Positions 11,641 through 58,469 of a stretch of DNA of 64,000 nt are shown here, in pieces (within the stretch, counting starts at the first letter, position 1; every line of letters begins with the position of its first letter). Location of the stretch: assembly GCA_019454045.1 (NCBI GenBank), contig SKCR01023813.1:330075-394074 (forward strand). The letters run 5' to 3'. The translations under genes were made by a program, and so were the position numbers. The notes below the pieces were generated by a model. The model made no database searches. It had not been told where the DNA came from and saw only the letters and a program-made list of their open reading frames with translations. This stretch comes from Zanthoxylum bungeanum (lineage: Eukaryota; Streptophyta; Magnoliopsida; Sapindales; Rutaceae).

Positions 11641-13409
11641 TTATCGGTGAAATCACACACGTAACGCAAGCGCATGTATCACTCAAGTAGTATAAAAATA
11701 TCGATCCCACGATGACTTAATTTCTATTGTTATTAATTATTGATTCTATTTATTTACAAATATCTAATTAGGATGAGAATGAAATGATTGCTTGATTGGT
11801 TGGTTGAATGTGGATTTGCTAAATAAATAAAAATATAAAATAAAATAAAGGAAATTAATAATAAAGAAAATAAACATTTAGGATTGTGATTCCACACAAT
11901 ATTATTCTAATGATGAATTGATTCACTTATATATGTGTAATAAATTAGTTTGTTAACCTGGAACACGAAGATATGCAAAAGCTTCTTCCGATGGTCAGAT
12001 GCAAACACTCAAAGTAACCCAATCAACTATATTCCTATGTTAACCAAGTTACCCAAATTCATTAAGTTCAAGTTCCAATTGTGACTACCTACGCCCGACT
12101 GTTATATGTCTATCATGGAAGGAAATATACTCTAAGGGAAATCTACACTAAGGTGAGATCGTGAGCTATTGAATCTAAGGCCGAAACCTAAAATCTCTTT
12201 TCCAAGTTCATTTAAGTTTACCACCTTAATCTTATTGGTGATCCGGCAACAAGAAGCATTAAGGATAAGATTCAATAAACAAGATTAAAGCATCACACAT
12301 AATATAATTAAATCATTTATTAAACTCATGAATATTGTGCTTTATCACTTCCCTAGATTAACAATAAAATATTGGGGTTAGAGGATCCACCTTTTCTATT
12401 TCAAATTTAGAAATCTCCCTTATTATAATATATAAATTTGTATTATATTACCAACCGACCATTAGGCGGTATCCTGATTAAGTCATTTGGTAATTAATTC
12501 CAACCGACCATGAAGGTGGTATCCAATTAAGTCAGGTTAAAATTAATTTAATTAAGTCTAACCGACCATAAAAGCGGTATCCAATTAAGTCAGGTTTTAA
12601 AATAATTTATATATTATAATTTAAGAGAGATTAATCTAAATAATCATAATAAAAGTTTCACTCTTCCCCCAAAGAAAATTAACTACAAAACATAAAAGAA
12701 AGATAAAGTAAATAAACTACTATTACTACTAGAAATATAAATACATAATTAAAATATTAAAAATAAATACAAACAATATACAATCCTTAGATCCTTATAT
12801 AGAACCTTAAGGAAAGTATGAATTTGGAAAATGAAATTAACTTCAATTTATAGGTAAATTTTGGCCTTGCGCGTCACGACGCAGAAGCTTTGCGCGTCGT
12901 GACGCGCCATTGATGCTTGACACGTGTACGCGGCTTCGACGAGATGATGACACATGGCACGCGGCTGTCGGCAGCTGAATTATTGGCTCGGCGTCGCAAC
13001 GCGTGAAGGCTTGGCGTCTCGGCGCTGACGTCATGCTGATGTAAGGAATGACGCGTGTTAGTAGGCTGAATTATTGTGTTGACGTCATGATGACGTGGTG
13101 ATAATGAACGTGATGACGCGTGTCGGTAGAATAGTAATTGAGGCTGACATCATGATGACAAGTGTTGGTAGAATAGTACTTGTGGCGCGTCGCAATGCAG
13201 AGAGTATGCGCATCGCGACGCATGATTCCATTTTTGCCTTTTTTGTCATTTTTTCACTGTTTTAGCCCCAAGTTGATTCCATTGAGTCCCAAAACTTTAT
13301 TTATCTGCAAAACACAAAAAAACACATCAAAACATTCATAAAACCCGAGAAATCATACAAAATATTAGGTCAAATGGGCAGTAAATAGTGATATATTTTT
13401 CGCTTATCA
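11641..13409 (-). repeat. 5' LTR of the minus-strand gypsy element
   Basis: Pairs with 6516-8294. On the element strand it has the CpG-rich U3 cluster (12860-13230), a CTATAAAT box at about 12849-12856, then the three tandem GCGGTATCC modules (about 12450-12600) in R/U5, and ends next to the primer-binding site at 11640. Confidence 0.9.
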
Positions 13410-22339: not shown

Positions 22340-24733
22340 TCAGCTTTCAGTGAGTGTAATGAATGAAGAGGAGAATGGGGGAGTAAGAACTTCCAGATAA
22401 CCTTCTAACATTTGCAAGACCATCTTCATTGTAGGCCTTTTTGAGGGATCTTCTTGAATGCACCACATTGCTATCATCAACCATTTATGCAGCCTTGATT
22501 TGTCAGCCATTGCAGCTTCATCATTGTCTACCAAAACATCCAGTCTCCCTTCAACATAGCAGTCATAAGCCCAGTCAGTTAGTATTGCAATTCTTTCGTC
22601 CTCCATCTCCATCTCCACGCTTCTCCTACAGCAAATGATTTCCAATAACATAACACCATAACTGTAAACATCCACTTTGGCAGAAATAGGCACATTCTTG
22701 AACCATTCTGGAGCCACGTATCCTCGAGTTCCTCTGATCATTGTACGTGTTCGAGACTGATCATAGAGTAACAGTTTGGATAATCCAAAGTCTGAAATTT
22801 TCGCTGTGAAGTATTCGTCTAGAAGTATGTTTTGAGGCTTTATATCACAGTGGATGATCGGCACATTGCATTCTTCGTGTAAGTACACAAGCCCTCTTGC
22901 AATCTCCAGAGAAATCCTGACTCTTAGACTCCAGTCAGGTTTCGGAATTGCAAAAATTAAGTTTGCCAAAGTCCCATTGCTCATGCATTCATACACTAAA
23001 ATCCGGTTAAGACCTTCATCACAATATCCAAGTAACTGGACTAGATTCTTGTGATGAGTTTTTCCGATTGCAGTGACTTCAGTTTTGAATTCCCTTTCCC
23101 TTTCTTGTGCTAACTTGTCCAATTTTTTGACTGCTATGGCATTTTGTGAATTGGATTTGAGAAAACCTTTGTAAACAATGCCGAAAGAACCCCTGCCTAG
23201 TTCTTCCTTGAAACCGTTTGTTGCTTTGTAGAGTTCGTTGAGCGAAAAGAAACACATATTTGTTTCAGAAATACTTGAATGTTGGACATTACTTCCATCT
23301 TTTCTCTTGCGCCACACGATGACACCAAGAACTATTGCCAGTAGCAAAAGGCAATTGAAGAATACAGAACCTCCTATTAGAAGTGCTCCTAATACAGTTG
23401 GTATTCCTTTCTTGCTGCCAGGATTGCCATGGAAACCAGGAAAATCTGCTTTCCTTACTTTGAAGAGAACTTTTGTGAATCCGACATTTTCAGCACGCCC
23501 ATTGGAGAGAGGCAATCTCTTCTTCCAGCAATTTGTTGTGCCATCATATATTGCAACAGCACATGAGCAATCATGCAAGCAAGATGCTTCACACTCTTTT
23601 TGGTCATATGGTCCCAGCCTTTCATAATCTCCCAGAGGAAAATTTACCCTATTGAATTCCCTTATTTCAAACAACTCATCTGCATCTCTTGATCCATCAT
23701 CTGGTCCACAGCCGCTCCAGTAATTTGGATTGCAACCGCTAAATCTGTTATTTGAATCCACAAATACATACCCAGGTGGGCAGTCACAATAAGGTCTCCC
23801 ATTTTGAAGAGAGCAGTAGCTATTGAAGCCACAAGCACCACTACCCCATTCATTAAATATAGCATTACAAATGTTGCCAGGAAGAATTCGTAGAGAAGAC
23901 CAGTTCTGATTTGAATCAGAATTCTTTGGGTAAGCATATTCTGCGAAAACTCCATCATAGTCCAATGTTGCTCGAAAATAAAGGTCTTCTCTAGGATTCA
24001 ATTGACTCCATAGAGGCAACTGGACAATTTGACCATTATTTTTTTCTATGTAAATATTAGATGATGCATTAAAAACCAGCCGATGACCAGACTCGGAAGA
24101 ATTTTCGCTGTAAGTATTACTACTGTAATAACTATTGTATTGGAATCGGCTTGGCCAGGCTACAGGAATGAGCTGAAGGTTTCCATTTGAAAAATGGAGC
24201 TCAAACCTACCTTTGGAGAAGTTGGTTTCTGTCAACTTGGAAACCAACACGCTACCCAAATCTAATATTTGTGTTGGCAAGATGGTGTCTGTTGGATTTT
24301 GAAAACTTTGCCAAACATAATCGGAATCATTTCCCGAGCCTCTAAGCACAAAATTACCTGTATCAAGCATAGCAGCATCTGATGCACTTCTGTCAGGATT
24401 TTGATTCCATATTGTTTGGCCTCGAGGATCTTTAAGCAAAAGGCCGGTGGCAGTGAATTCAAGTGTTGATCCTCCGGGAGCTGGGCGATCTCCATTGGCA
24501 TACCAGACGATGGTTTTTTCAGGTATTTTGTTGAACCAAATGGAAAGCAAGAAATGGTCCGAATTGTTGAGTTGCTGAAATCCGAAAGCAAAATCTCCTG
24601 AAGGTGAAACCCATGAAGAGTTGTTACTGCTGCTGCTTGATAGAGTTGAACCCAGAGTTATGTTGGCCGCAGACAAATATGGTAGCAGTGGAAGACAAAG
24701 TAAGATACAACAAGAGAGAGCCACGGAAGCCAT
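22340..24733 (-). CDS. G-type lectin S-receptor-like serine/threonine kinase (LECRK-like)
   Basis: Single uninterrupted frame of 797 residues from the ATG at 24733. An upstream in-frame ATG at 24811 would add 26 residues ahead of the signal peptide, so 24733 is preferred (MASVALSCCILLCL, a hydrophobic signal sequence). Order, in preferred numbering: B-type lectin domain about 25-150, EGF-like cysteine-rich stretch 289-320, PAN-type cysteine motif 375-430, one membrane segment 444-473 followed by RKRK, and a kinase domain 509-780. The kinase has the glycine loop GRGSFG, the VKK lysine (about 536), HCDIKPQN in the catalytic loop (non-RD: cysteine in place of arginine) and DFG (648-650). Family members are plasma-membrane receptors in defence and stress signalling. 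The intronless structure is usual for this family. It lies between two non-autonomous hAT insertions and is the only intact ordinary host gene here. Confidence 0.95.
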   Translation of the reverse strand: MASVALSCCILLCLPLLPYLSAANITLGSTLSSSSSNNSSWVSPSGDFAFGFQQLNNSDHFLLSIWFNKIPEKTIVWYANGDRPAPGGSTLEFTATGLLLKDPRGQTIWNQNPDRSASDAAMLDTGNFVLRGSGNDSDYVWQSFQNPTDTILPTQILDLGSVLVSKLTETNFSKGRFELHFSNGNLQLIPVAWPSRFQYNSYYSSNTYSENSSESGHRLVFNASSNIYIEKNNGQIVQLPLWSQLNPREDLYFRATLDYDGVFAEYAYPKNSDSNQNWSSLRILPGNICNAIFNEWGSGACGFNSYCSLQNGRPYCDCPPGYVFVDSNNRFSGCNPNYWSGCGPDDGSRDADELFEIREFNRVNFPLGDYERLGPYDQKECEASCLHDCSCAVAIYDGTTNCWKKRLPLSNGRAENVGFTKVLFKVRKADFPGFHGNPGSKKGIPTVLGALLIGGSVFFNCLLLLAIVLGVIVWRKRKDGSNVQHSSISETNMCFFSLNELYKATNGFKEELGRGSFGIVYKGFLKSNSQNAIAVKKLDKLAQEREREFKTEVTAIGKTHHKNLVQLLGYCDEGLNRILVYECMSNGTLANLIFAIPKPDWSLRVRISLEIARGLVYLHEECNVPIIHCDIKPQNILLDEYFTAKISDFGLSKLLLYDQSRTRTMIRGTRGYVAPEWFKNVPISAKVDVYSYGVMLLEIICCRRSVEMEMEDERIAILTDWAYDCYVEGRLDVLVDNDEAAMADKSRLHKWLMIAMWCIQEDPSKRPTMKMVLQMLEGYLEVLTPPFSSSFITLTES

Positions 24734-25131
24734 TGCAAGATGTTGCTGTGAAAAAAGAGAAGCCTTTACTTTTACTTCAAGAACATATATGGGATCTCCG
24801 TTGTTAGTCAATCACAACGAGGGCGGTATCAAATCACACGCTTTGAATCTGGAAGTTTGAAAATTCCAATTGAAAGTATGTGGTTCATATGAGTACGCGT
24901 AGGTGATTTTCTTTTTTTCAATTTCATGGCTTCTTCTTGGAAGTCAGATATAAGTAGATCAATTCAAGGCTCAAGGCCGCAGCTATGATTTTTAAACCCC
25001 TGAGAGTAGTTATCACGGCATTGATTTAACATGATTTTGACTACTTAAGATGAACACCAAAGTTTACGAAGTCAGAAGAGTTTGATCTTATTTTCATAGC
25101 AGTAAATCTTTGGTAGAAGGAAGACATGAGT
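24734..25131 (-). promoter_or_regulatory. Upstream region of the receptor kinase
   Basis: About 400 bp lie between the kinase start and the hAT insertion. A CATATATG sequence at about 24784-24791 is a weak TATA candidate some 50 bp upstream of the ATG. The hAT element at 25132-25842 sits within 400 bp of the start codon and could affect expression. Confidence 0.35.
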
Positions 25132-28320: not shown

Positions 28321-28549
28321 TCAGCTCGAGGTGGCACGGGATGAGCTTCTTCAAGCAGAGAAGCCAGTGGATGGACTTGCCAAAGTTAGCTCGGGTCAAC
28401 CTCTTCGGTCAGAGAAGGCCTAGTGGAAGAGATGAAGAAGTTATGAATCAGAAGCAGAGATGTTAGATCAGGGTTATGAACTCAACGTAGATTTTCACAA
28501 GAATGAACACTGAAGGTTGCAGTTGTGGTACCTGTTATGAGGTGGTGCA

Positions 28550-30658
28550 TGATGAGCAGAAAATATATCAATATTTACCGCCCCTTTAACATAATATTTT
28601 GTTTCGTTTCTCAGGTTTGATGAACGTTTTGATGTGTTTTAGTTTATTTTGCAGATAAAATAATATCGGGTCTCAATGAAATCATTTAGGACGAAATATG
28701 GGTCAAATAAGGGAAATTATTGGACTTGATATTTTAATTTTGGAGATTGGAAACTTGAAAGGGCGTTTTTGACAAAGTGCAGTTTTGGAAAATCCAGTTT
28801 TGCACATCTGTAGTAATGGGGGTATAACTTTTTACTCTGTTATCTTATTGCGCTGATTCAAGTTCCAGATTAAAGAAGACTCAAAGATCTACAACTTTGA
28901 AAGACAAAATATTTTTGAATTCTGAAGATTTCATGACCGAAATTGATGAACCATCCAGAAGTGTGTTGTGTGTAATTATTAAAGTCATTTTCAATCATTT
29001 TAAAAGCAAAAAAATAAATTAATAAATAAATAATAAAATTATCAAATCATCACCAAACATGATAAGAAATTAGTGGAGCAATTAATAATGGATTTGGTGG
29101 AGTGATTAGTGGAGAATTTGATGGATGATTTGATGGAGGTAAAATTTTGCCTATAAATACCAAGCAATTTCATTTGTAAAATTCATACTTTCTTCTTTGA
29201 AATTCCTAAAGAATAAATAAGAAGATTGTATCTGTTTGTTTATTTACAGCTTTCAGTAATTAATTTCCGCTTTCACACTTTCTTTTCTTTATTTTTCAGT
29301 TTTTACTTTCCGAATTTACTTTTACGCACAATCTTTTCCTTTCTTTACTTTTGCAGTTTTTATTTTTCAAGCAATGAGGAGGTAATTCCCCTTTGCTGGG
29401 GTGAAAGGTAAAGCTTTTATTATTGCTATTTAGATTAATCTCATTAATTACAATATATAAACTATTTAAAACTTGACTTAATAAGGATACCGCTATATTG
29501 GCCGGTTGGTAATTAATTATAAATTGGTTTTAACCTGACTAGTATGGATACCGCCTGGTTGGTCGGTTGGTAATTAATTATTATTTGACTTAATCAGGAT
29601 ACCGCCTATATGGCTGGTTGGTAATTATCACGCAAAGTTAATATATTATATTAAATGAGATATCTAAAATAGTAGTAATAAAAGTTGATCCTTTAACCCT
29701 AACATTTTCTTTTATTGTACTTTTACTTTATTTAATTTCAGTAATTTACTTTTCAGCAATTTACTCTTCAGCAATTTACTTTCAGTAATTTACTTTTATT
29801 TTTTTTACTTTTTACATTTTACTTTTACTTTTTACTTTTTTTACTTTTCAGCAATTTACTTTTCAGTATTTAATTTTCAGTATTTTACTTTATATCTTTT
29901 ATTTTATTTAAATTTTTACTACCTGTAAATATGTGTCGTAACTAAGCCAGTTATCTGGGGTTGTGATGAAATCCAATATCACCGGTTTATAACGGGTTAG
30001 ATTATAGCTTGGGTAATATAAAGGTTTATTTATTGAGTCTTAATCTTAATGCTTTTTATTAACTGGCCATTAATAAAATTGATTAGGTAAACTTAAAATG
30101 AACTTGGAAATGGATTTTATGTTAAAGACCTTAGACTCAATAGCCCACAATCTTCATTGAGGATATAAACCTTTAATAGATTTCCTTACAGGAGGAATAT
30201 ACCTGTCGGGCGGGGGTAGCCATAATTGGAACTTAAACTTAATGAATCCAGGTAATTTGGTTGACATCGACATATGGTTCAATTGGGTTATACTGGGTAT
30301 TTGTAATCGACCATCGGAAGAGGCTTTTACATAATTTAGTGTTCCAGGTTAATAAATTAATATACTACCCAACTGTAAGATAATCACTTCATCTTTAATA
30401 GATATTGGAAGGATTCACAACCCTGGATAGTTTTTAAATTTGAATTTTCTTCAATCTACTTTCAAGAAATTGTATTTACTTGTTTTAAGTTTTAAAGTCA
30501 CCACCCAATCAAACAATCAATCTATTAGATACTTGTAAACATTTGACCTCATAAAAAATTAATAGCAAAGGTTTTAAGTCCTCGTGGGATGACTACTTTT
30601 TATACTACTTGAACGATATGTGCGCTTGCGTTATACGCGTGTGATTACGCATCGGTCA
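28550..30658 (+). repeat. 5' LTR of the LOG-bearing gypsy element
   Basis: About 2.1 kb. TATA box CTATAAATAC near 29150. Three tandem modules starting GGATACCGC at 29485, 29546 and 29597, each with a GG(C/T)(C/T)GGTTGGTAATTA core. A TTTACTTTTCAGCAA-type low-complexity tract runs 29700-29895. The first few hundred bases differ from the 3' LTR at several percent of positions, so the insertion is older than Copia copy B. Confidence 0.93.
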
Positions 30659-30684
30659 AGTTTTTGGCGCCGTTACCGGGGACT
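30659..30684 (+). other. tRNA primer-binding site of the LOG-bearing element
   Basis: AGTTTTTGGCGCCGTTACC immediately follows the LTR end at 30658. TGGCGCCGTTNCCGGGGA is the conserved primer site of Athila-like plant gypsy elements. It recurs on the minus strand at 11623-11640 and, degenerated (TTTTTGGCACCGTTGCTGG), at 54730-54749. Confidence 0.85.
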
Positions 30685-30789: not shown

Positions 30790-33292
30790 ATGAGACGAAT
30801 CAAAAGCTTTGAACTCCGACCGCTTGACCCAGAAATTGAAAGAACCATAAGACAGTTGAGAATGGAAAGGCGAGAAGGCTAAGAAGCTTTAGTCAACATG
30901 GAACCTGAACCTTTGAACGTTGCATCACCGATTCCCATTCGAGACAGAACCATTCCGGTGGTTGACGACTTCATTTCCTGTATTGTACTTCCTCCTTTAC
31001 CAGCAAATACGTGTGACATCAAAACATGCATCCAGATGATTCAGCAGTTAGTACAGTTTGGGGGAAATGCAACTGAAGATCCTAATTCCCACATCAGCAA
31101 CTTCCTGAAAGTTTGCGGTACTTTCAATTACAACCGAGCAGCTGAAGAAGCAATGAGACTGCAGGTTTTTCCATATTCCCTGAAAGACAGAGCTAAAGCT
31201 TGGCTACATTCGTTACCAGCAGGTTCTATCACAACTTGGAACACTCTAGCCACCAAATTCCTTGCAAAGTACTTTCCACCAGCCAGAACTGCAAAGTTGA
31301 GGAATGACATCACATCCTTCGTGCAACAAGATTCAGAATCCCTTTTTGAAGATCAAGCCTGGGACTTAATTGAAGAAATGGCCAACAAAAACTCCTTGTA
31401 GCCAACAGAAATGAGCATGATCCAAAGAATTGCAGGAATTTATGAAGTTGGAGCCAACACAGCACTGAATTCCAAGCTGAATGTGATTTGCAAAAATCTG
31501 GAAACTCTTAACATGAAAGTTAATGGTGGATCCACAAGTTCACCATTTGGAGGAACATCTGAGTCAGAATCTTTCAACCAACATAAAGAAACGATGAATT
31601 ATGTCAACAATTTCAATAGACATGAGAACAATCCATATTCCAACACCTACAACCCAGGGTGGAGAAATCATCCCAATTTCGCATGGAGCAACAATTCAGG
31701 GCAAATGAACAACCCACCACCTGGATTCCAACAACAGAACAAAGGCCAGGAGCAGACAAATGAATCAGGAATAACAGAAGTGTTGACCCACTTGAAAAAG
31801 ATAGAAGCAAAACATGACTCTCAAGAAGCAAGATATGATGCTATGTTTCAATCCCAAGCATCATTAATTCAAAGTCAATCTGCTTCTATTAAATTGGACA
31901 ACTGGCCAATGCTCAGAGTTACAGACCGCCAGGTAACCTTCCTAGCAACACAGAGCCAAATCCAAGGAACATGGGAAAGGAGCAATGCCATGCCATCATG
32001 TTAAAAAATGATACTGAAATCAACAAAGATGTTGGAATCAAGGCAACAACAATTGAAGATAATCCAAAAGAAACAAAGCAACAGATGGAGGAAAAAGAAC
32101 AGATAACTTCACCTCCACCTTTTCCTCAGCATCTTCAGAAGAATAAACTGGACAAGCAATTTGCTCGATTCTTGGAGGTGTTCAAAAAGCTGCATATCAA
32201 CATTCCATTTGCAGAAGCGTTGGAACAAATGCCCAGCTATGCCAAATTTATGAAAGACATTCTCACGAAAGCGGAGATTGGGAGATTATGAGACAGTAGC
32301 ATTATCAGAAAAATACAGCGCCATCATTCAGAGAAAACTTCCTCCAAAGTTGAAAGATCCTGGCAGTTTCACTGTTTCTTGCATCATATGAGAACATGAC
32401 TTCGGTAAGGCTCTGTGTGATTTAGGTGCTAGTGTTAACTTGATGCCTTTTTCTATTTTCAGGAAACTGCAGATTGGAGAAACAATGCCCACTTCAGTCT
32501 CTCTACAACTTGCTGATAGAACGCTCGTATTTCCAAAAGGCGTAGTTGAGGATGTGCTGGTCAAGGTTGACAAATTCATTTTCCCAACAGATTTTATTGT
32601 CCTTGATATGGAGGAAACGCAGACGTCGTGCCAATCATCCTCGGGAGACCATTCTTGGCTACAGGTCGAACCATTATTGATGTACAAAAGGAGAACTAAC
32701 CATGAGGGTACAGGACCAAGAAGTAACATTCAATGTTTTTAAAGCCATGAATTTCCTGAATGACAAGAATGAGGAATGTTTCAGACTTGATGTGATACAT
32801 AGTACCGATCAGAACTCTGATGAAAGACAAAGTTCTACTGACAAACTTAAAATATGTCAATTACCTGTGGAGCCTGAAGATAAAGCGCATTGCGTACTGA
32901 AGAAGCATATTCTTGCACTACAAGCAACAGAAGAGAAAAAGTTCCACCGGCTCAACGAATTGGAGGAATTTCACATATAGCCTTTTGAGGATGCCAAATT
33001 GTACAAGGAAATGGTAAGGAAAAGACATGATGAGAAGTTAGTGTGCATACAACTGGAACCAGGGCAGAAGGTACTGTTAAACAAATCAATGGTGAAATTC
33101 TTCCCATGGAAGCCAAAATCACGGTGGTTAGATCCATTTGTGATCACCAAGGTTTTACCAGACAGAGCCGTTGAGATATATGATCCCGACTCCAACAAAA
33201 CTTTCAAGGTTAAAAATAAGCGTGTTAAGCACTACTGGGGAGAATCATTTGAGCGACAAAAAGAAAGTGTTACACTTTCAGATCCAGCTTAA
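30790..33292 (+). pseudogene. Gag-pol remnant with RT-RNaseH-integrase core deleted
   Basis: Gag begins at ATG 30790 (MRRIKSFELRPLDPEIERT) and meets an in-frame TAA at codon 31 (30880-30882). The same frame then continues through the retrotransposon gag domain (FPYSLKDRAKAWLHSL, about 31165-31212), hits TAG at 31399-31401 and continues to 32004. A frameshift leads into 31971-32291. The protease region at about 32400-32620 retains CDLGASVNLMP with its catalytic aspartate. The next recognisable segment (32999-33292) is the integrase C-terminal tail (LLNKSMVKFFPWKPKSRW, then VKHYWGE). Reverse transcriptase, RNase H and the integrase catalytic core are missing. The AGGGAGGCAACCCATGC sequence at 33339-33355 is the usual end-of-pol landmark in this group and is also present near 10315-10330 on the minus strand. 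Confidence 0.9.
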
Positions 33293-33430
33293 CGTTCGAG
33301 ACGTCACGTCTAGCTGACGACTTTAAACTTAGCGCTCGCAGGGAGGCAACCCATGCAATTTTTGTATATATTATGATTTGGTGTGATTTAATTTGGTGTG
33401 TTTAGTTTTTGCAGATTAAGACATTTCAAG

Positions 33431-33979
33431 ATGGAAGAAGCTCTCGCAAATCTTCACAAGCAATTTCCTTCTCTCCCTCAAAAATCTCTGATAAAAGTCT
33501 ACAAAGCTCGCTTGGAACGGATGAGACTACTGATGATCAAAGGTATTCCTACTGACATTCGTTGGATTATTGAAGCACGGGTCCGATTGGTAGGTGAGTC
33601 TTCTAACTATTTTATTTCACATCTGCCTGGTTTTGGAAGAAGCACCTATGCAAAGAAACGTAGAGCTAAGCAAATGGGTGTTTGTTACAAATGTGCACGC
33701 TGGAATTGCAATACTCGTTGTCGTTATTTAGGAATAGTGTCTGATAATCGCGAAGACAAAATTAAATTCATTAGGGATGGCTTGAGTAAAGAGTCTTTAG
33801 ATGATATATCTTCGACTCTTGAGACGCATCCCAGTGGATATGTTCACCTAGCCTTTCACAAATTACATACACAATTTCAAAAAGAAAGACAACTGTTAAG
33901 TCTTGGGAATCTGACTCAAAAAGACCCTGTTTACCAATTTATAAGAAAATTGGATGGGAAGCTTGTCCCTGACGCATAG
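33431..33979 (+). CDS. Accessory ORF of gypsy elements, unrecognised, CX2CX4CX3C protein
   Basis: Intact 182-residue frame from ATG 33431 (MEEALANLHKQFPSLPQ); an in-frame ATG at 33398 would add 11 residues, but a TTTTTGCAG acceptor-like site at 33414 lies between them, favouring 33431. I do not recognise the family. It is basic, has a helical N-terminus, a Y-A-K-K-R-R-A-K stretch, then CYKCARWNCNTRC (CX2CX4CX3C, a plausible zinc site) near residues 86-98. A second half rich in charged residues follows. A clear homologue, now broken by stops, is at 57950-58290 in a different gypsy element, at the same position after pol. Conservation of the cysteine block in both suggests a real element-encoded protein, perhaps nucleic-acid binding (inference). 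Confidence 0.8.
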   Translation: MEEALANLHKQFPSLPQKSLIKVYKARLERMRLLMIKGIPTDIRWIIEARVRLVGESSNYFISHLPGFGRSTYAKKRRAKQMGVCYKCARWNCNTRCRYLGIVSDNREDKIKFIRDGLSKESLDDISSTLETHPSGYVHLAFHKLHTQFQKERQLLSLGNLTQKDPVYQFIRKLDGKLVPDA

Positions 33980-34230: not shown

Positions 34231-34884
34231 ATGGAAGCCACTTCGAGAAGACGAGTTGAAAACATTTGTGTGTTTTGCGGTAGTAGTGTTGGTACTAAAC
34301 CACAATACGTAGAAGCAGCACGGGAATTGGGTCGAGTCTTAGCTGTAAGGAATATGCACTTAGTATATGGCGGAGGCAATCTTGGACTAATGGAGATCGT
34401 TTCAAAGGTCGTACAAGAAGGAGGCAGTCACGTTTTAGGAATCATCCCAAAACCCTTGGCAGAGGCAAATCTTATTGGATCATCAAACGGAGATGAACTG
34501 ATCGTGCCTAGTATGTCTGAACGATTGGTAGAAATGATCAACCGTGCTGATGCTTTTATCGTTTTGCCAGGTGGCTTGGGCACATTGGAGGAAATTGTTA
34601 TAGTGTTATCTTGGGCGAACTTGAACATACACCAGAAACCAATTGGGATGTTTAACGTTGATGAATTTTATGATTTTCTTTGTGTGTTTCTTGTTGATGC
34701 CCGAATAAATGGGTTCGTGTCAAAACCTTTAAAAGAACTACTCTTTACTGCCAGAACTGCTCCGGATCTAATAGACCAACTCTTAGCCTATGAACCACAA
34801 GTTGACCCTATCCTTTCAAAGATAAATTGGTCCGAGGATGATCGTGGTAAAAGGCGTCGTGTTAATCTGGATCTTAACCTTTAA
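34231..34884 (+). CDS. LOG: LOG: cytokinin riboside 5'-monophosphate phosphoribohydrolase, intronless cargo
   Basis: Intact 217-residue frame. LOG enzymes release active free-base cytokinins from nucleoside monophosphates in the cytosol and nucleus. Evidence: ICVFCGSS near the N-terminus, LVYGGGNLGLM (usual form GGGSVGLM), HVLGIIPK, the catalytic-site signature PGGLGTLEE (about residues 114-122), NVDEFYDFL, and a conserved terminal Trp (about 201). The arginine of the usual MHxRK segment is kept (MSERL) but the lysine is leucine. The last 16 residues are unlike ordinary LOGs: basic KRRR then LDLNL, an LxLxL pattern like EAR repression motifs. Plant LOG genes normally have several introns, and none is present here, which points to capture of a processed copy. 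It sits inside a retrotransposon between the accessory ORF and the 3' modules; the related element at 47696-62195 lacks it. Confidence 0.93.
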   Translation: MEATSRRRVENICVFCGSSVGTKPQYVEAARELGRVLAVRNMHLVYGGGNLGLMEIVSKVVQEGGSHVLGIIPKPLAEANLIGSSNGDELIVPSMSERLVEMINRADAFIVLPGGLGTLEEIVIVLSWANLNIHQKPIGMFNVDEFYDFLCVFLVDARINGFVSKPLKELLFTARTAPDLIDQLLAYEPQVDPILSKINWSEDDRGKRRRVNLDLNL

Positions 34885-34946: not shown

Positions 34947-34984
34947 GACATTGGGGACAATGTCTCATTTAGGTTTGGGGGAGG
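34947..34984 (+). other. Hairpin plus internal polypurine-like tract
   Basis: GACATTGGGGACAATGTC (34947-34964) forms a 7-bp stem with a GGGA loop. It is followed at once by TTAGGTTTGGGGGAGG, nearly identical to the true polypurine tract at 36183-36197. The same arrangement occurs at 58473-58509, and as the minus-strand motif at about 9387-9412. This looks like a second, internal polypurine tract. Confidence 0.7.
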
Positions 34985-36182: not shown

Positions 36183-36197
36183 TTAGGTTTGGGGGTG
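36183..36197 (+). other. 3' polypurine tract
   Basis: TTAGGTTTGGGGGTG directly precedes the 3' LTR start at 36198, the expected position for plus-strand priming. The minus-strand gypsy element has the same motif at 8295-8313. Confidence 0.85.
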
Positions 36198-38338
36198 TGA
36201 TGAGCGGAAAATATATCAATATTTACCGCCCCTTTAACATAATATTTTGTTTAGTTTCTCAGGTTTGATGAATGTTTTGATGTGTTTTAGTTTATTTTGC
36301 AGATAAAATAATATCGGGTCTCAATGAAATCATTTAGGACGAAATATGGGTCAAATAAGGGAAATTAATGGACTTGATATTTTAATTTTGGAGATTGGAA
36401 ACTTGAAAGGGCGTTTTTGACAAAGTGCAGTTTTGGAAATTCCAGTTTTGCACATCTATCGTAATTGGGGTATAACGTTTTACTCCGATATTGGATTGAG
36501 CTGATTCAAGTGCCAGATTAAAGAAGACTCAAAGATCTACAACTTTGAAAGACAAAATATTTTCGAATTCTGAAGATTTCATGACCGAAATTGATGAACC
36601 ATCCAGAAGTGTGTTGTCTGTAATTATTAATGTCATTTTCAAAGCAAAAAAATAAATTAATAAATAAATAATAAAATTATCAAATCATCACCAAACATGA
36701 TAAGCAATTAGTGGAGTAATTAATAATGGATTTGGTGTAGTGATTAGTTGAGAAATTAATAATGGATTTGGTGGAGAATTTGATGGATGATTTGATGGAG
36801 GCAAAATTCTGCCTATAAATAGCAAGCCATTTCATTTGTAAAATTCATACTTTCTTCTTTGAAATTCATAAATAATAAATAAGAAGATTGTATCTTGTTT
36901 GTTTATTTACATCTTTCAGTAATTAATTTCCGCTTTCGCACTTTCTTTTCTTTATTTTTCTGTTTTTACTTTCCGCAATTTACTTTTACGCACAATCATT
37001 TCCTTTCTTTACTTTTGCAGTTTTTATTTTTCAAGCAATGATGAGGTAATTCCCCTTTGCTGGGGTGAAAGGTAAAGCTTTTATTATTGCTATTTAGATT
37101 AATCTCCCTTAATTATAATATATAAACTATTTAAAACTTGACTTAATAAGGATACCGTTATATTGGCCGGTTGGTAATTAATTATAAATTGGTTTTAATC
37201 TGACTAAGTATGGATACCGCCTGGTTGGTCGGTTGATAATTAATTATTAATTTGACTTAATCAGGATACCGCCTATATGGCTGGTTGGTAATTATCACGC
37301 AAAGTTAATATATTATATTAAGGGAGATATCTAAAATAGTAGTAATAAAAGTTGATCCTCTAACCCCAACATTTTCTTTTATTGTACTTTTACTTTATTT
37401 AATTTCAGTAATTTACTTTTCAGCAATTTACTCTTCAGCAATTTACTTTCAGTAATTTACTTTTATTTTTTTTACTTTTTACTTTTTACTTTTTACTTTT
37501 ACTTTTTACTTTTTTTACTTTTCAGCAATTTACTTTTCAGTATTTAATTTTCAGTATTTTACTTTATGTCTTTTATTTTATTTAAATTATTACTACCCGT
37601 AAATATGTGTCGTAACTAAGCCAGTTATCTGAGGTTGTGATGAAATCCAATATCACCGGTTTATAAGGGGTTAGATTATAGCTTGAGTAATATAAAAGTT
37701 TATTTATTGAGTCTTAATCTTAATTCTTTTTATTAATTGGTCATTAATAAAATTGATTAGGTAAACTTAAAATGAACTTGGAAAATGGATTTTATGTTAA
37801 TGACCTTAGACTCAATAGTCCACGATCTTCCTTGAGGATAGATAACCCTTTAATAGATTTCCTTACATGATAGGAATATACCTGTCGGGCGGGGGTAGCC
37901 ATAATTAGAACTTAAACTTAATGAATCCAGGTAATTTGGTTGACATAGACATATAGTTCAATTGGGTTATACTGGGTATTTGTAATCGACCATCGGAAGA
38001 GGCTTTTACATAATTTAGTGTTCCAGGTTAATAAATTAATATATTACCCAACTGTAAGATAACCACTTCATCTTTAATAGATATTGGAAGGATTCACAAC
38101 CCTGGATAGTTTTATAAATTTGATTTTTCTTCAATCTACCTTCAAGAAATTTTATTTACTTGTTTTAAGTTTTAAAGTCACCACCCAATCAAACAATCAA
38201 TCTATTAGATACTTGTAAACATTTGACCTCATAAAAAATTAATAGCAAAGGTTTTAAGTCCTCGTGGGATCGATACTTTTTATACTACTTGAACGATACG
38301 TGCGCTTGCGTTATACGCGTGTGATTACGCACCGGTCA
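36198..38338 (+). repeat. 3' LTR of the LOG-bearing gypsy element
   Basis: Pairs with 28550-30658, including the CTATAAATAG box (about 36811), three GGATACCG modules (from 37150), the TTTACTTTTCAG tract (about 37375-37565) and the CGGTCA end, followed by the target duplication GTGCA (38339-38343). Confidence 0.93.
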
Positions 38339-38461
38339 GTGCAGAGTTGCGATTCTGTACTTGATCAAGAATGAGCATCAGCATGAGAAAAAACCACTAT
38401 CTTTTATAAAATTCTCGACATCAACTTGCAAACTCGTTGATACCAAGAACTAGATGACATA

Positions 38462-47695: not shown

Positions 47696-48590
47696 TGATG
47701 AACAGTAAAAAATATACATTTATCAAAAGAAAAAATTAATCATTTTACACTTCTAGTTTCTTTAATCCCCTTAATTTAGCACATTTGTGAAATAATAATT
47801 AAATTTATGTTTTATATATTTTTATTGTGATTTTTATTTCTTATATAGGTGAAATAATATTTTGGATACATACTTAGAAAAATGGACGTGACATTTGGAT
47901 TTTGGAGGCCAGAAACTTGAAAGGGTGTTTTAACAGTATACAATTTCAAAAATTTCAACTGTGCACAATTTTCGTATTTTGGCCATAACTTTTTACTCCG
48001 ATATCAGATTGAGGTGATTTCAGTTCCAGATGAAAGAATACTCAAATATCTACAACATTGATCTATAAGATTTTCAAGTTCTGAGGTTTTCAAGGTCGAA
48101 ATTGGTGAAGAAGCCAATATGTATTGCATGTAATGTTAAATATTAGAAAACAAAATAAAAAAATAAAAGGTAAAATAAAATAAAATTTGAAATGTCACAA
48201 TCCACCTTTAGGTGAATTGTGACAAATGATCAACAAAAATCAAAATCAAAATCAAAAAAGAAAAAAGAAAAAAGAAAAAAATTAGTAAAAGTTTATTGTT
48301 TGTATTTGATTTGGAAAGTTGTAATTAATAATTAAGGGATGAGCACTTCTACTATAAATTGATGTGCTCATCTCTCATTTTGGTCATGCTTTTTTCATTT
48401 TATCTCTTGAAGAACTTGGAAGAAGTGTCTTATATGTTTTATTTTTCAAGCTTTCTTGTAATCTTTTTTCTTTCAGTAATAAAATTATACAAGTTTTTAT
48501 TCAAATCATGAGTAGATAATTCCATTATGTTAGAATAAAAGGTGAAACTCTAAATATGAGAATATAAATTAATTTTACGTATATTATAAT
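47696..48590 (+). repeat. 5' LTR of the old gypsy element, first part
   Basis: Shares blocks with the LTR of the LOG-bearing element (GGAAACTTGAAAGGG-type, CATAACTTTTTACTC, CAGTTCCAGAT..AAGA). The remaining part, 54150-54726, has two copies of a TTACCGC(T/A)TTTAT(A/G)GCT module and the CTAACCCCAACATT stretch. Confidence 0.8.
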
Positions 48591-49902
48591 TGAAAGTACC
48601 TACAAGCAATAGCGACAAACAATCTTTATACCCAAGAGGGGGGTGAATTGGGTTATCGCTATAAATGCGGAATTATAAAATCTTTGCCGATTTTAAGCTC
48701 TTATTACCAAGTGGGAGTTATAGGCCAATTTTCTCTATTCTAATAAATATCCTATATGCAATTTTCTAATCAATAAGTGTAAATACAAAATAACTTGCAA
48801 ATAGTAAAAGAGTATGGAAAGAGAGATACGACACCGCGATATATAGTGGTTCGGCCAAACGTGCCTACGTCCACTCCCCCAAGCCTCGCTTGAAGATTTC
48901 TACTAAAATCGAGTTTCCGTGGTTCACTCGCAACCAAGAGTTTTCCGCAAAGGTGCACTCCAAACCCTTTTACAATTTTGAGTTTTGTTCGTAGGCTCAC
49001 TCACAAACCTTTACAATTACCCAACCAAATGGGATTTCACAAATCACAAGTGTTTCGTTAAGAAGAATTACAAACACACTTGGGCACTCACAAATAATAA
49101 GAAGATTGTGTGAGAGCAAAACCCAAGTGATCTAAGCTCACTAAATGATATGAAGATGTATGTGAGCTTGGATGAATGTTTAAAGTGTGTGAACGTTTTG
49201 GACACTTTTTTCTTGCCTTAGAGAATGTATGAAGATTGTGTATTAAGTCTCTTACCTAAGGCAAAGGAGTTGTGGTCTTATTTATAACAAAATGCAAAGC
49301 TATCCCCAACTACAGCAAAACCGGCGAGAAGACCGGCATGCCGGTCTAGGGTTTCAATATCTCCCAACGGCTATATAACGTTCGAAAAACTAGCCGTTAG
49401 ACCGGCGAGCAAACCGGTATGGAGACCGGCGAGGACCAGCCCGATTCCAGAGAGCAGGATTTTCTTGCCAATACCGGCATGAAGACTGGCGAGGTAACCG
49501 GCACGGTATGGCCCAGTTCCGGTAGGCATGCGAAACAGGGGAAGGCCGGTTTAATGACCAGTAATGGGGACCGGTATGGTCCATGCCGGTTCCAGAAGGC
49601 TTCCCTAAATACTAAAATGCAGATTTGAAGGTTTTAATGCATTTTGTACATGCCCCTAATGCATCTAAGTGAATGTGCATGATCCCTATGAGCTTAAGCA
49701 CTTGAATATTACATCTCACATTACAAATTAAATCCTAAGCTAAGACTTTTGCAATATAATCTTCATTTTGCCGCAAGTCTTCACATTCTCGCTCTTCACC
49801 TCATATGCTTCGACACTTTTTGTATTGCTTCGTGATTGTACGTCGAAGTCGTCGATTGCGTTGACATCATCAAAATCCAATTAAGCGACCAAGTCGCCAA
49901 CA
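48591..49902 (-). repeat. 3' LTR of the nested SIRE-like element
   Basis: Begins TGAAAGTACC and ends CGCCAACA on the plus strand. At 49315-49590 it carries more than a dozen ACCGG(C/T) motifs in two orientations, also present in the partner LTR at 53560-53830. Confidence 0.92.
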
Positions 49903-51005
49903 ATCTCCCCCTTTTTGATGATGGCAACCCCTTAAAACTTGTTGATACTTGTGAGCTTCTTGGAGTCCAAATTTGACAATTTTGCTCCCCCTCAACATAA
50001 GCTCCCCCTCAATGTGTAATTGTCTTCAAAATAGCTCTATAAGACTTAGACAAACACATTAGTACAATTACTCCCCCTTAAACCAAGGGTGAGGGTAAAA
50101 CAAGTTTTAATCTCATTTCTAATGATTTCTCCCCCTTTGACATTATCAAAAAGTGGAGAAGCAAAATTAAGTTCTAAAATGAAATACCAAAATATGTGTG
50201 CAAAAATGATAACAAATTTAAAAAAAATATGCACATTTGGCATTTCCCCCTTTTTGCCATAAAAAAAAAATCAAAATTTATGCATAAAATAGTATTTTTC
50301 AAAAGATAGATTCTCATGAATACCATTTACAATCTAAGAGCATCTTAATCATGATTTCTCCCCAAATTTGATACCAATTAAAAAATATATCAATAAATCC
50401 ATTTGAATATCATATCACTTTTAAGCATTCTTTCAAAATGAGTCATTATATATCATGATACCAATTAAAACCAATGACTTCAATGCATTTTAATGATTGT
50501 ATTCTTATGAATATCTTACCAATTACTAAACAATCAAAATCCATGCTTTTCATGATTATTCAATTATGTTCTAATACATACATTTCATGATATTCATCTA
50601 AGATTATGTCAATTACATGCATTTCATTTTCAATCAATTAGTTCATATGGCAAGGCATATTCAATCAAGTGATCACATATATTGCATTTAACTCAATAAA
50701 TTTCATGTGATACCAAATGAAATAGAATATGGGTTTAAATATGTGATTAAGGCACTTAGTGATATCAAATGAAAATCGGTACCAATAGAAGTTTAATACA
50801 TTGCCTAATCACTTTGTATGCTTTAAAAATATTTTAACCAAAGTGAAATATGCATACATATAGAAATTGGAGGAAATGGTACCAATGTTTCCGTGAATAC
50901 GGAGTTTACCTTTACCGTTGCGAATCCTCATCTCTTTGAGCTTTTGGGATCAATTTTGCAATTTGTCTTTAAAGTTCCATTCCCAAAGCTCCCCCTACAT
51001 ATTTG
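49903..51005. other. Non-coding interior of the SIRE-like element
   Basis: AT-rich with clusters of CTCCCCCT on the plus strand (AGGGGGAG on the element strand), repeated near 49905, 49985, 50004, 50072, 50131, 50246 and 50990, like multiple polypurine-tract-like motifs. No domain of pol is detectable. Confidence 0.6.
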
Positions 51006-52781
51006 TCAATTACACTTTGGTACCCAAACTTTCTTGGGTCCATTGGGGTTAGTTTTGATTCCTTGAGGAATCCATGCATTTTTAATCACATTCTTATACA
51101 TGTATTCAAAAATTTTATGTCCATTTTCATTGCAAGCATGACATGTGACATTTTCATTTATAACATTCTTATCATGAGAATCAGAAGCCTTAACAAAATA
51201 ATTTCTCAAAAATTTTCTTTTAATATAAGGCCTATATCCTAATCCTTCTCTTTTAAATGCACATTTTTGGGATCCAATAAGCATATTAAAATTTTTATGT
51301 CCCAATGTGAATTTGCTAAGTATGTTTTGCAAATCTACAATCTTAGTATTTAATAAGACATTTTCATTCAATATAGATTCGCAATCGCATGTCTTAGAGC
51401 TAGATGGCATATTTGATATGGCATTTTCAAGTTCTAGCTTTTTAATCTTTAAACATGCATTTTCATCATTTAAGCATGCAATTTCTTTTTCATATTTGGC
51501 CTTTAAGCATATAATCTCATTATCTAAAACATGAATTTTATCCATATAACATGCATGTTCAATTTTAAGTGTAGCATGCTCATTTTTGACCAATTTTAAT
51601 TTCTTTTTAAGCATATCACATAATTCTTTTAAACCATTAAAAGCATCAAGTAATTCAGAATTGTGTACCTATTCTTCTTCGCTTTCTTCTTCAATTTCAA
51701 ATCGGATGTCTTCATCCGTAATAGCCATAAATGCTATTGATTTATCTTTGACTTCAACTTCTTCCTCCTCGGATGAGCTTGAATCACTATCGCTCCAAGT
51801 TGAAGTTGCTTTCATTGCCTTTTTCTTTGTTTTTCCTTTCATTTTCCTCAATGGGCAATCGGTAGCTATGTGACCCGGTTTGTTGCATTCATAACACACA
51901 ATTTTCTTGTTCTTTCGCGGCCATTTTTCTTCTTTCTTTTCATCCGTCTTTGATTTTCCCTTTCGATTTACGGACTTAAGAAGCTTCTTCAAGTTCTTAT
52001 TTAATTGAGCCAACTCATCATCACTATCTTCTTCTTCACTTGAGCTTGACTCATCTTCTCTTCTTGCTTTTAAGGCCAAGGATTTCCTTGTCCTTTTCTC
52101 ATCTTCCTCCTTTTTGTCCATTTTGATCTCCATTTCATACTCAAGTAATTTTCCAACTAAGTCATCCATCTTCAATGTGTTTATGTCATTTGCTTCTTTA
52201 ATGGAGGAGGTATAGCTTCTAAATTCCTTTGGGAGTGATCTCAAGATTTTCTTCACTTGATCCGATGTCCCAATGACTTTTCCCAATGCTCCCAAATGAT
52301 TGATGATGACCGTAAACCTCGAAATCATGTGATCGATTTCTTCCCCGGATTCCATCTTGAAATTGTCCAATTCGCACATGAACCGGTTGATCTTCGATTC
52401 CTTCACTTGACTTGTGCCATCATTGACCATTTCCAATGACTTCCATAAATCATATGCGTTGCCATACTCTGGAAGTTTGTTTATTTGCTCCCGATCAATG
52501 CCACATTGAAGTTGGTTGAGAGTTTTAGCATTTTGTGATGCTTGCTTTAAATCCTCAGTATCCCATTCTGAACTTGGCTTCGGAATTTCAACCCCATTTC
52601 TATCATTTTTCATTGGCATACTGGCACCCCGTGTGATGACCAAATAGGATGGCGGATCATTGGCTAAGAGATAAGTTAACATTCTTGACTTCCAATAGTT
52701 GTAGTCTGTTCCGGTGTAAAACGGAGGTCTAGTTGTTGAATATCCCTAGGCAAAATTTGAAGAGTGGCTTGTAGATCCCAT
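51006..52781 (-). pseudogene. SIRE-like gag with two in-frame stops
   Basis: Start ATG at 52781 (MGSTSHSSNFA), then a TAG at codon 12. The same frame runs on through the gag core (DYNYWKSRMLTYLLAND; KSLEMVNDGTSQVKESK; about 52700-52150), an acidic/serine-rich linker, a zinc knuckle CYECNKPGHIATDC (about 51850-51895) and an acidic tail to a TAG at 51669. It continues in the same frame into a coiled-coil-rich segment (MLKKKLKLVKNEHATLK, 51614) with a second knuckle-like CHACNENGHKIFEYM and ends near KVWVPK at 51006, just where protease-integrase normally begins in SIRE-type elements. Only point stops break the gag. Confidence 0.88.
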
Positions 52782-52836
52782 AGTCTATTCTCGGACGGTT
52801 AAGTCTTTCTTGAGAATACCTCGCTCTGATACCAAC

Positions 52837-54144
52837 TGAAAGTACCTACAAGCAATAGTGACAAACAATCTATATACCCAAGAGGGGGTGAATTGGGTTA
52901 TCGCTGTAAATGCGGAATTATAAAATCTTTGCCGATTTTAAGCTCTTATTACCAAGTGGGAGTTTTAGGCCAATTTTCTATATTCTAATAAATATCCTAT
53001 ATGCAATTTTCTAATCAATAAGTGTAAATACAAAATAACTTGCAAATAGTAAAAGAGTAGGGAAAGAGAGATACGACACCGCGATATATAGTGGTTCGGC
53101 CAAACGTGCCTACGTCCACTCCCCCAAGCCTCGCTTGAAGATTTCTACTAAAATCGAGTTTCCGTGGTTCACTCACAACCAAGAGTTTTCCGCAAAGGCG
53201 CACTCCAAACCCTTTTACAATTTTGAGTTTTGTTCGTAGGCTCACTCACAAACCTTTACAATTACCCAACCAAATGGGATTTCACAAATCACAAGTGTTT
53301 TGATAAGAAGAATTACAAACACACTTGGGCACTCACAAATAATAAGAAGATTGTGTGAGAGCAAAACCCAAGTGATCTAAGCTCACTAAATGATATGAAG
53401 ATGTATGTGAGCTTGGATGAGTGTTTAAAGTGTGTGAAGGTTTTGGACACTCTTTTCTTGCCTTAGAGAATGTATGAAGATTGTGTATTAAGTCTCTTAC
53501 CTAAGGCAAAGGAGTTAGGGTCTTATTTATAACAAAATGCAAAGCTATCCCCAACTACAGCAAAACCGGCGAGAATACCGGCATGCCGGTCTAGGGTTTC
53601 AATATCTCCCAACGGCTATATAACGTTCGAAAAACTAGCCGTTAGACCGGCGAGCAAACCGGTATGGAGACCGGTGAGGACCAGCCCGGTTCCAGAGAGC
53701 AGGATTTTCTTGCCAATACCGGCATGAAGACCGGCGAGGTAACCGGCACGGTATAGCCCGGTTCTGGTAGGCATGCGAAACAGGGGAAGGCCGGTTTAAT
53801 GACCGGTAAGGGGACCGGTATGGTCCATGCCGGTTCCAGAAGGCTTCCCTAAATACTAAAATGCAGATTTGAAGGTTTTAATGCATTTTGTACATGCCCC
53901 TAATGCATCTAAGTGAATGTGCATGATCCCTATGAGCTTAGGCACTTAATATTACATCTCACATTACAAATTAAATCCTAAGCTAAGACTTTTGCAATAT
54001 AATCTTCATTTTGCCGCAAGTCTTCACATTCTCGCTCTTCACCTCATATGCTTCGACACTTTTGTATTGCTTCGTGATTGTACGTCGAAGTCGTCGATTG
54101 CGTTGACGTCATCAAAATCCAATTAAGCGACTATGTCGCCAACA
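52837..54144 (-). repeat. 5' LTR of the nested SIRE-like element
   Basis: Pairs with 48591-49902. Contains the ACCGG array at 53560-53830. The primer site lies immediately left at 52817-52834 and TSD ATAAT follows at 54145-54149. Confidence 0.92.
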
Positions 54145-54149
54145 ATAAT

Positions 54150-54726
54150 ATATGAATTGTAATTTGAAAACTAATATTTAATGTTCTCTTATATTTGCGA
54201 GTGTCTTGATTCTCTGTAAACAATCAAATCTTGGTCAGCACAGTTAATACTTTACCACATATTATATGATAGAGTAATTTAAATCTGGATTAATTATTGA
54301 TAAATTGTGTTACCGCTTTTATAGCTAATTTTATATATTTGGCATAATTGAGTACCTAATTAGGCTTGTTATAAACAAATATTGTTACCGCATTTATGGC
54401 TGGTTTTTATATTTTTGGCATAATTAATCCCTGAAGTAAATTAATTGGCTAATAATGATAATTTATATATTATAAAAAGTAAGATTTCTTTATATTTAAA
54501 ATATCAATAGTGGATCCTCTAACCCCAACATTATATTTTATTGTCGTAGTCCAATTTAAATTTGTCCATCACTTCAAATAATTTATCTTTCTTATTTTCA
54601 CTCAAAGTATTATTTTATTTTACTAAATCTATTCCCTGTGAATCGACCACAGACTTACCGGGTTATTTTATTACTTCGACACTCTTATACTTGGGAGTAA
54701 AGAACCACTATGTGATGAGTGTGTCA
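54150..54726 (+). repeat. 5' LTR of the old gypsy element, second part
   Basis: Continuation of the LTR after the Copia insertion, ending GTGTCA at 54726 followed by AGTTTTTGGCACCG. Contains two tandem modules with TTACCGC and TTTTTGGCATAATT (54310-54425), the counterpart of the three modules in the other gypsy LTRs. Confidence 0.8.
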
Positions 54727-55399
54727 AGTTTTTGGCACCGTTGCTGGAGAATATAATTTAGTAGATAGAATAATAATTTATTTTTTTATATTTTCTGCAT
54801 CTCATTTTTTTCTTCTTTTTTGCAGTTGTATAGATCCAATATGTCTTTATTGATCCTAAATGAATTCTGAACCTAAACATCTCACGTATAGACAAATTAT
54901 ATATTTGATTCTTCAAGGTTACATGAGACAGAAAACTCAATTAAAATGGAGCTTGTATTTTGCCAAAAAATTTCTTGAACCATCCCCATCTAGAGATTCT
55001 TCCATAATTTTTTTTAAGAATCTAATTCGAGAAATTAAGGCAGCTAAGTGAGAAATTCAATTGAGATCTGAATTGACAAGAATGGGAGGACGATTTTAGG
55101 ATCTAATTATTACATTTTTCCCTTTATCATTTATCTTTTTTTTTCTTTTTCACTTGTTTATTTTATCTCTTCTTTTTGTAAATATAGCATTTGCATATTT
55201 AAATTTTTGCATATAGTCTGCATTTAGGTTGAATGAGACATTGGTCTTGATCATCTAGCAATAGATTAAATAGAGAGTCTCAATCACCTCAATCGTAAAT
55301 TAAAATGACTAAAATAAAAACCCACCTAACCGAGATGAAAATCCAATTGATCAGGTAGAACGTGAGTCTCAGCATGGCGATCTTAATCTTCCTATGACA

Positions 55400-57910: not shown

Positions 57911-57949
57911 TGAGTTCTTAAATTTATTGATTCATTCATCTCTTGCATA

Positions 57950-58290: not shown

Positions 58291-58469
58291 AGGCGTTTAA
58301 GCCATTACTGGACGTAAAACCAGAGAAATATGTGAGCCATAATCACAACTACCAGTTACTGTTTTGATTTCCTTTTACTGTTTTAATATGTAACCTTTCT
58401 TTTAGTACCAGTATTGTAGATTCAATTATCATTTCCACACTATGTCTTCCAAACTCTACTTCTTCTTAT

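What the first reader, a model, noticed from the sequence alone, without database searches (positions are those of the whole stretch)
34231..34884. An intact, intronless LOG cytokinin-activation gene carried as cargo by a gypsy retrotransposon
The LOG frame lies wholly between a gypsy element's LTRs (28550-30658, 36198-38338), whose ends are proven by the GTGCA duplication. It lies downstream of the pol remnant, on the same strand, and has no introns, whereas plant LOG genes normally have several. The related element at 47696-62195 has the same neighbours on either side (accessory ORF, then the hairpin/polypurine motif) but no LOG, giving an empty-site comparison. A retroelement spreading a hormone-activating enzyme under an LTR promoter could affect host growth or the tissue in which the element is active.
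Basis: partly seen in the sequence, partly recalled or inferred. Interest (0 to 1): 0.93.

Follow-up and report, generated by a model that had tools for sequence, protein, structure and literature searches.

The report
LOG hormone gene kept by retrotransposon
An abundant plant jumping gene carries its own copy of an enzyme gene of the kind that activates the growth hormone cytokinin, and its spreading lineages have kept that gene's protein sequence intact; such elements were noted before, but the selection, the shared tail and the virus-like partner gene appear to be new.

Summary
A 217-codon LOG-type frame (34231-34884) lies between the LTRs of a Ty3/gypsy element with a GTGCA target duplication. 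It is not a one-off: the host genome (3.96 Gb) gave 150 scored full-length matches, 143 without an in-frame stop. Of 78 loci chosen by noncoding DNA beside LOG, 75 hold LOG sequence, 72 at least 90% of it, 21 strictly open. Variants private to one copy look neutral (ratio 1.00); variants shared by four or more copies are depleted in amino-acid changes (0.36, 0 of 2000 permutations), with no depletion in controls. So LOG is a maintained element gene. Several copies share the window's RT-less pol. The listed LOG relatives sampled form one clade apart from cellular LOG1/3/8 types, and 79 of 96 end in an LxLxL tail (0 of 120 cellular). The neighbouring ORF matches carlavirus nucleic-acid-binding families and is also constrained. 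LOG domains in gypsy elements of Citrus and Populus are in print, so the kind is known. Expression, enzyme activity and any effect on the plant are inferred, not shown.

The parts
28545..28549 (.). target-site duplication, left copy (GTGCA)
   Evidence: read directly
28550..30658 (+). 5' LTR, TG...CA
   Evidence: 94.2% to 36198-38338; K2P 0.035
30665..30682 (+). primer-binding-site-like stretch TGGCGCCGTTACCGGGGA, 6 bases after the LTR (tRNA-Asp type as in Athila elements, recalled)
   Evidence: read directly; assignment recalled, not tested
30898..32004 (+). gag (two frames 30898-31401 and 31411-32004)
   Evidence: PF03732 Retrotrans_gag 52 bits for 30898-31401; the second frame has no Pfam match
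32440..33292 (+). pol remnant: protease-like end running into integrase-C-terminus-like frame; no room for RT, RNase H or integrase core
   Evidence: frames; identity of the pieces by eye, no Pfam match; alignment continuous through it in L002, L003, L004, L006, L007
33431..33979 (+). accessory ORF, 182 aa, Carla_C4 / Viral_NABP-like with C-x2-C-x4-C-x3-C and basic stretch
   Evidence: PF01623 E 3.3e-6 and PF05515 E 4.1e-6 (scanned as 33398-33976), both above curated cut-offs
34231..34884 (+). LOG-type phosphoribohydrolase frame, 217 aa
34840..34881 (+). codons 204-217: basic plus LDLNL (LxLxL) tail, not seen in the cellular LOGs examined
   Evidence: pLDDT under 50
34947..34984 (+). hairpin GACATTGGGGACAATGTC followed by internal purine-rich GGTTTGGGGGAGG
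   Evidence: read directly; fold z -2.02
36187..36197 (+). polypurine tract GTTTGGGGGTG before the 3' LTR
   Evidence: read directly
36198..38338 (+). 3' LTR
38339..38343 (.). target-site duplication, right copy (GTGCA)
   Evidence: read directly

Best explanation
A high-copy, RT-lacking (non-autonomous) gypsy family, Athila-like by recalled features, carries LOG as a resident element gene after pol. Shown by sequence: family-wide presence, purifying selection on inherited changes, neutral decay of single copies, intact LOG motifs and a confident LOG fold model. Inferred: the LTR transcript yields a LOG enzyme that frees active cytokinin from its riboside monophosphate. The resulting local cytokinin would favour dividing, meristem-like cells in which the element (mobilised in trans by an RT-bearing partner) can copy itself and reach the germ line.
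For: Presence: 150 scored full-length matches, 143 of 150 stop-free (window included, picked by protein score). In 78 loci picked by neighbouring noncoding DNA: 72 with at least 90% of LOG, 3 partial, 3 without. Selection: spectrum-matched permutation on 70 rows gives N/S ratio 1.00 for singletons, 0.80 for variants in 2-3 copies, 0.36 for variants in 4 or more (0 of 2000 permutations as low); in that last class six pseudo-frames of two spacers give 0.86-1.12 and two wrong LOG frames 1.41 and 1.58. Dropping doubtful and duplicate rows gives 0.35 (68 rows) and the sample farther from LOG alone 0.27 (33 rows), each 0 of 2000. Ancestry: LOG-less L012, L016 and L022 align only from 34871 or 34840, inside the LOG 3' end, which points to loss. 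Enzyme: model pLDDT 85.8, best PDB match At2g37210, TM 0.95 by target length; R98 at 90% or more and E120, E121, P113, G114, G115 invariant in 33 aligned LOGs, relatives and cellular. Non-autonomy: five of seven other copies fetched with the upstream part (L002 and L003 99.8% alike, probably one locus) align through the same pol remnant.
Against: No expression, enzyme or hormone data. 51 of 78 loci carry a near-full-length but broken LOG. Of 21 open copies, 7 differ at one or more of the eight motif positions scored. The Lys of cellular MHxRK is Leu here, so substrate choice may differ. Selection on a trans-acting product in a non-autonomous family is hard to explain unless there is cis-preference or the constraint comes from an RT-bearing sister lineage, which I did not find. 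Shared variants may partly predate the loss of RT. The full extent of pol was seen only in the window copy.
Confidence: 0.6

Rival explanations
1. LOG is a resident, selected element gene, but its substrate or role is not cytokinin: it acts on other nucleotide monophosphates or nucleotide signals (SLOG-type chemistry), for example to tune nucleotide pools or blunt a nucleotide-based immune signal.
For: Selection shows function, not which function. The clade is separated by long branches from cellular LOG1/3/8 types, and MHxRK has become MSERL. Pfam also scores SLOG cluster4, as it does for cellular LOGs.
Against: Catalytic motif and fold stay those of type-I LOG; no direct sign of another substrate.
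Confidence: 0.22
2. Passive transduction: a LOG cDNA was captured by chance and rides along without use to the element.
For: Gene capture by plant LTR elements is known (PMC7264820, part 1 of 3 read). Most sampled copies are broken (51 of 78).
Against: Inherited variants are constrained at 0.36 while singletons are neutral, with no depletion in controls. The gene is present in copies whose LTRs and upstream parts differ, and most near-full-length listed relatives share a tail.
Confidence: 0.07
3. Ordinary host LOG gene or retrogene into which LTRs were inserted, or a retrogene later exapted by the host.
For: The window copy is intact, and a single intact copy could be host-used.
Against: 150 scored places and 75 of 78 loci sharing the neighbouring element DNA hold LOG. 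Clade apart from 13 cellular LOGs, UFB/SH-aLRT 98/96.
Confidence: 0.03

Closest known systems
Gypsy elements with a LOG/YgdH domain in Citrus sinensis, C. clementina and (without their n5 filter) Populus trichocarpa (PMC9289625: abstract, section 12 and found passages read; it cites Steinbauerova et al. 2011, not held, whose abstract I recall as 'two Athila-like elements with similarities to LOGL4')
   Same: LOG-type domain inside a Ty3/gypsy element
   Different: That screen used reverse transcriptase as marker, so RT-less families like this one would be missed by its design. The parts I read report no selection test on it, no tail and no virus-like partner ORF.
Cellular plant LONELY GUY enzymes (LOG1/LOG3/LOG8 types; 2a33, 1ydh)
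   Same: fold, length, PGGxGTxEE and MxxR motifs
   Different: 36-44% identity to the eight cellular rows aligned; separate clade; none of the 120 cellular LOGs listed has the LxLxL tail
Phalaenopsis gypsy elements with an AlkB-type RNA demethylase (PMC9289625)
   Same: enzyme gene retained as an additional ORF in a plant gypsy family
   Different: different enzyme; giant elements with an RT domain; activity shown in vitro there, not here
Carlavirus cysteine-rich nucleic-acid-binding protein (Pfam Carla_C4, Viral_NABP)
   Same: basic stretch plus cysteine cluster; both Pfam cut-offs passed by the window ORF
   Different: weak similarity (27 bits), different kind of genome; structure model too poor to compare

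Membership tests
LOG (cytokinin riboside 5'-monophosphate phosphoribohydrolase, type I) | LOG/Lysine_decarbox domain above curated cut-off | tested here: met
   PF03641 113 bits, TIGR00730 156.7 bits; the bacterial equivalog NF058542 scores 106.8 against a cut-off of 300, so that model is not met
LOG (cytokinin riboside 5'-monophosphate phosphoribohydrolase, type I) | PGGxGTxEE and upstream MxxR motif, type-I fold | tested here: met
   window sequence; (fold from a predicted model)
LOG (cytokinin riboside 5'-monophosphate phosphoribohydrolase, type I) | hydrolysis of cytokinin riboside monophosphates | not testable with these tools
   needs protein
Ty3/gypsy LTR retrotransposon | paired LTRs with TSD, PBS, PPT, gag | tested here: met
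   PBS tRNA assignment recalled
Ty3/gypsy LTR retrotransposon, Athila lineage | RT/RNase H/integrase placing it in the Athila lineage | tested here: not met
   RT region absent in this copy (frames, no pol domain); the Athila label rests on PBS, gag look and 3' ORF position (recalled), so I call it Athila-like only
Autonomous element | complete pol | tested here: not met
   about 1.4 kb between gag frame end and accessory ORF; remnant shared with L002, L003, L004, L006, L007
Carlavirus-type nucleic-acid-binding protein | Pfam Carla_C4 / Viral_NABP above cut-off | tested here: met
   27.4 bits each, against 20.9 and 23; relative P0179 misses both cut-offs narrowly
Carlavirus-type nucleic-acid-binding protein | same fold and nucleic-acid binding | tested here: inconclusive
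   model pTM 0.30, not searched; binding not testable here
EAR repression motif (LxLxL) proteins | LxLxL motif | tested here: met
   LDLNL at the C terminus; 79 of 96 near-full-length relatives
EAR repression motif (LxLxL) proteins | binding to TOPLESS-type co-repressors | not testable with these tools
   motif meaning recalled

The most novel reading that the evidence does not exclude
The element's LOG is an old, dedicated host-manipulation protein: a cytokinin-activating enzyme that gained a nuclear, co-repressor-recruiting tail (KKR...LDLxLxL), kept by selection in a retroelement clade spanning several eudicot orders, and used together with a carlavirus-like nucleic-acid-binding ORF that counters silencing. 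That would be a retrotransposon with a virus-like accessory programme acting on host hormone state and defence.
Probability: 0.15. Interest if true: 0.88.

Novelty: new variant of a known kind. Interest (0 to 1): 0.62.

Why it matters
It shows, with a test that uses the copies' own neutral decay as baseline, that a retrotransposon has kept a hormone-enzyme gene functional while spreading. That makes 'do transposons steer host hormones for their own spread?' testable. It also warns annotators: genomes with such elements can show many spurious 'LOG genes' (for example the Populus entries named LOGL10, possibly element-borne; their surroundings were not seen).

Tried and rejected
Rejected: chance ORF (domain scores); single captured copy; clean empty site in the second element; LOG-less close copies as pre-capture state (in L012 and L016 only about 14 bases of LOG remain, in L022 about 45, so the case is firm for L022 and weaker for the other two).

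Led nowhere: host cellular LOG exons (lists of 150, apparently filled by element copies); relatives in viral contigs for LOG and the accessory ORF (two pattern matches each, none confirmed); accessory ORF against solved structures (best E 0.097); accessory ORF structure model too poor to search. Steinbauerova 2011 not held. Paper searches: (LOG in elements) found nothing; others gave nothing on LOG in elements beyond PMC9289625, judged from listings; 31 and 84 (carlavirus-like ORF in elements) nothing relevant; 80 (EAR motif with retrotransposon) six listings, none on this subject by title.

A first, cruder shared-versus-singleton test also showed some shift in the spacer control (Fisher p 0.09, 0.026, 0.18 in three pseudo-frames). 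The spectrum-matched permutation replaced it; there the spacer controls lie at 0.86-1.40 in all classes. Rows left out: one search dropped L040 and L050 by name; one search dropped L050 and L075 (under 80% identity) and kept L040; both left out loci with under 90% of LOG and the repeat places L039 and L041. L085 (same LOG as L082) was kept and dropped; one search repeats the test without L040 and L085. Contig pairs L012/L016, L031/L038 and L082/L085 are 99.9% alike, probably one locus each, so independent LOG-less cases are two and partial ones two.

Full report
1. What is in the window. The frame 34231-34884 codes for 217 aa with a type-I LOG domain, closest among solved structures to At2g37210. 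It lies between LTRs 28550-30658 and 36198-38338 with GTGCA on both sides. Order on the + strand: LTR, PBS-like site, gag (PF03732), a short pol remnant, an accessory ORF, LOG, a hairpin with a purine-rich stretch, PPT, LTR. LTR divergence is K2P 0.035, about 1.4 My at 1.3e-8 per site and year, and up to 7 My at slower rates; the rates are recalled.

2. It is a family trait. The host genome search scored 150 matches, window included, all spanning residues 1 or 2 to 217 at 89-100% identity, with a stop in 7 of 150. That list is chosen by protein score. For a sample chosen without LOG I used noncoding DNA downstream of it. Of 78 loci (window included, two repeat places removed), 72 hold at least 90% of LOG, 3 part, 3 none; 21 are open without any indel. 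By query: the farther spacer gives 34 of 40 near-full-length (9 open, 3 partial, 3 none); the adjacent one 38 of 38 (12 open). Three contig pairs are 99.9% alike, so the LOG-less loci are two independent cases. They still align from within the last 14 (L012, L016) or 45 (L022) bases of LOG, which points to deletion, firmly only for L022. L050 and L075 carry a LOG only 71-72% alike, so more than one LOG-bearing subfamily exists. The LTRs of several copies diverge strongly from the window's while the LOG part stays.

3. Selection. If LOG were cargo, inherited and private variants would show the same amino-acid/silent balance. I permuted each variant among LOG sites of the same base and CpG/CHG context. 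Singletons: N204 S65, ratio 1.00. Variants in 2-3 copies: N82 S41, 0.80. Variants in 4 or more: N60 S74, 0.36, 0 of 2000 permutations as low (70 rows). In the last class six pseudo-frames of two spacers give 0.86-1.12, and the two wrong LOG frames 1.41 and 1.58. The accessory ORF gives 0.31 (18 rows, 0 of 2000). Without L040 and L085 LOG gives 0.35 (68 rows), and without the window as well 0.35 (67 rows); the farther-spacer sample alone gives 0.90, 0.48 and 0.27 (33 rows). Copies die neutrally, while the spreading lineages keep both proteins. Limits: the majority base stands in for the ancestral one; copies are related; the sample leans to the window's kin.

4. Non-autonomy. Between the end of the second gag frame and the accessory ORF only about 1.4 kb remains. 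Of seven other copies fetched with 1.5 kb upstream, five (L002, L003, L004, L006, L007; L002 and L003 are 99.8% alike and may be one locus) align through the same pol remnant; L005 and L008 have another upstream part and lack the accessory ORF. In 39 loci of the adjacent-spacer sample (window left out) LOG is open in 12, the accessory ORF open in 1 and absent in 18. No RT-bearing sister was found, nor could I fetch longer stretches.

5. Relatives. The protein search listed 120 of 1577 relatives: unnamed contigs at up to 86% identity, and named plant entries from Xanthoceras, Populus, Paulownia and Reevesia at 48-54%. Element context of these was not visible to me; some are large clusters (P0104 with 39, P0110 with 205 member sequences), which fits repeats but does not prove it. 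In a 35-row tree (20 relatives thinned at 80% identity from the 96 of near-full length, the window, 13 cellular, one bacterial) the relatives and the window form one clade (UFB/SH-aLRT 96/90), split from the cellular LOG1/3/8-type rows (98/96). LOG5 and LOG7 types were not deliberately sampled, so the donor is open.

6. The tail. 79 of 96 near-full-length listed relatives have LxLxL within the last 16 residues, and 95 of 96 a basic pair in the last 20, against LxLxL in 0 of 120 listed cellular LOGs. The model leaves the tail disordered. The EAR meaning is recalled. In the 21 open copies LxLxL is unchanged in 20, and 1 has a Leu-to-Phe change. Within the tail alone the shared-variant counts (N3 S5) are too few to test.

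7. Accessory ORF. It passes both Pfam cut-offs for carlavirus-type nucleic-acid-binding proteins. 384 relatives were found, 120 listed, the named ones in Xanthoceras, Populus, Acer, Orobanche and Rhamnella. A silencing-suppressor role is inference.

8. Prior work. PMC9289625 (abstract, section 12, passages) reports the LOG/YgdH domain in gypsy consensuses of Citrus and Populus and cites a 2011 report that I recall but could not read. PMC7264820 (part 1 of 3) reviews additional ORFs. No paper on the carlavirus-like ORF in retroelements turned up in the held library.

9. Verdict. Real, family-wide, selected; kind known, variant and evidence new. The hormone mechanism is the best guess, not shown.

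Noticed in passing
33431-33979 and relatives: Accessory ORF with carlavirus nucleic-acid-binding similarity (C-x2-C-x4-C-x3-C), with relatives in several plant genomes and constrained in shared variants (0.31).
   Followed up: partly
47696-62196: Second, LOG-less relative whose 3' LTR is cut off after about 111 bases and which contains a nested repeat pair of 97.6% identity (48588-49904 / 52834-54146).
   Followed up: partly
6518-8294 and 11643-13409: A repeat pair (88% alike) that matches the LOG element's LTRs in part, at about 72-83% and in opposite orientation: another relative of this family nearby.
   Followed up: no
22340-24811 (- strand): Intact 823-aa frame that looks like a G-type lectin receptor kinase (by eye), the only obvious host gene I saw.
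   Followed up: no
L005, L008 upstream of LOG: LOG joined to a different upstream part without the accessory ORF; the two L008 frames scanned have no Pfam match. Suggests recombination between element families.
   Followed up: partly
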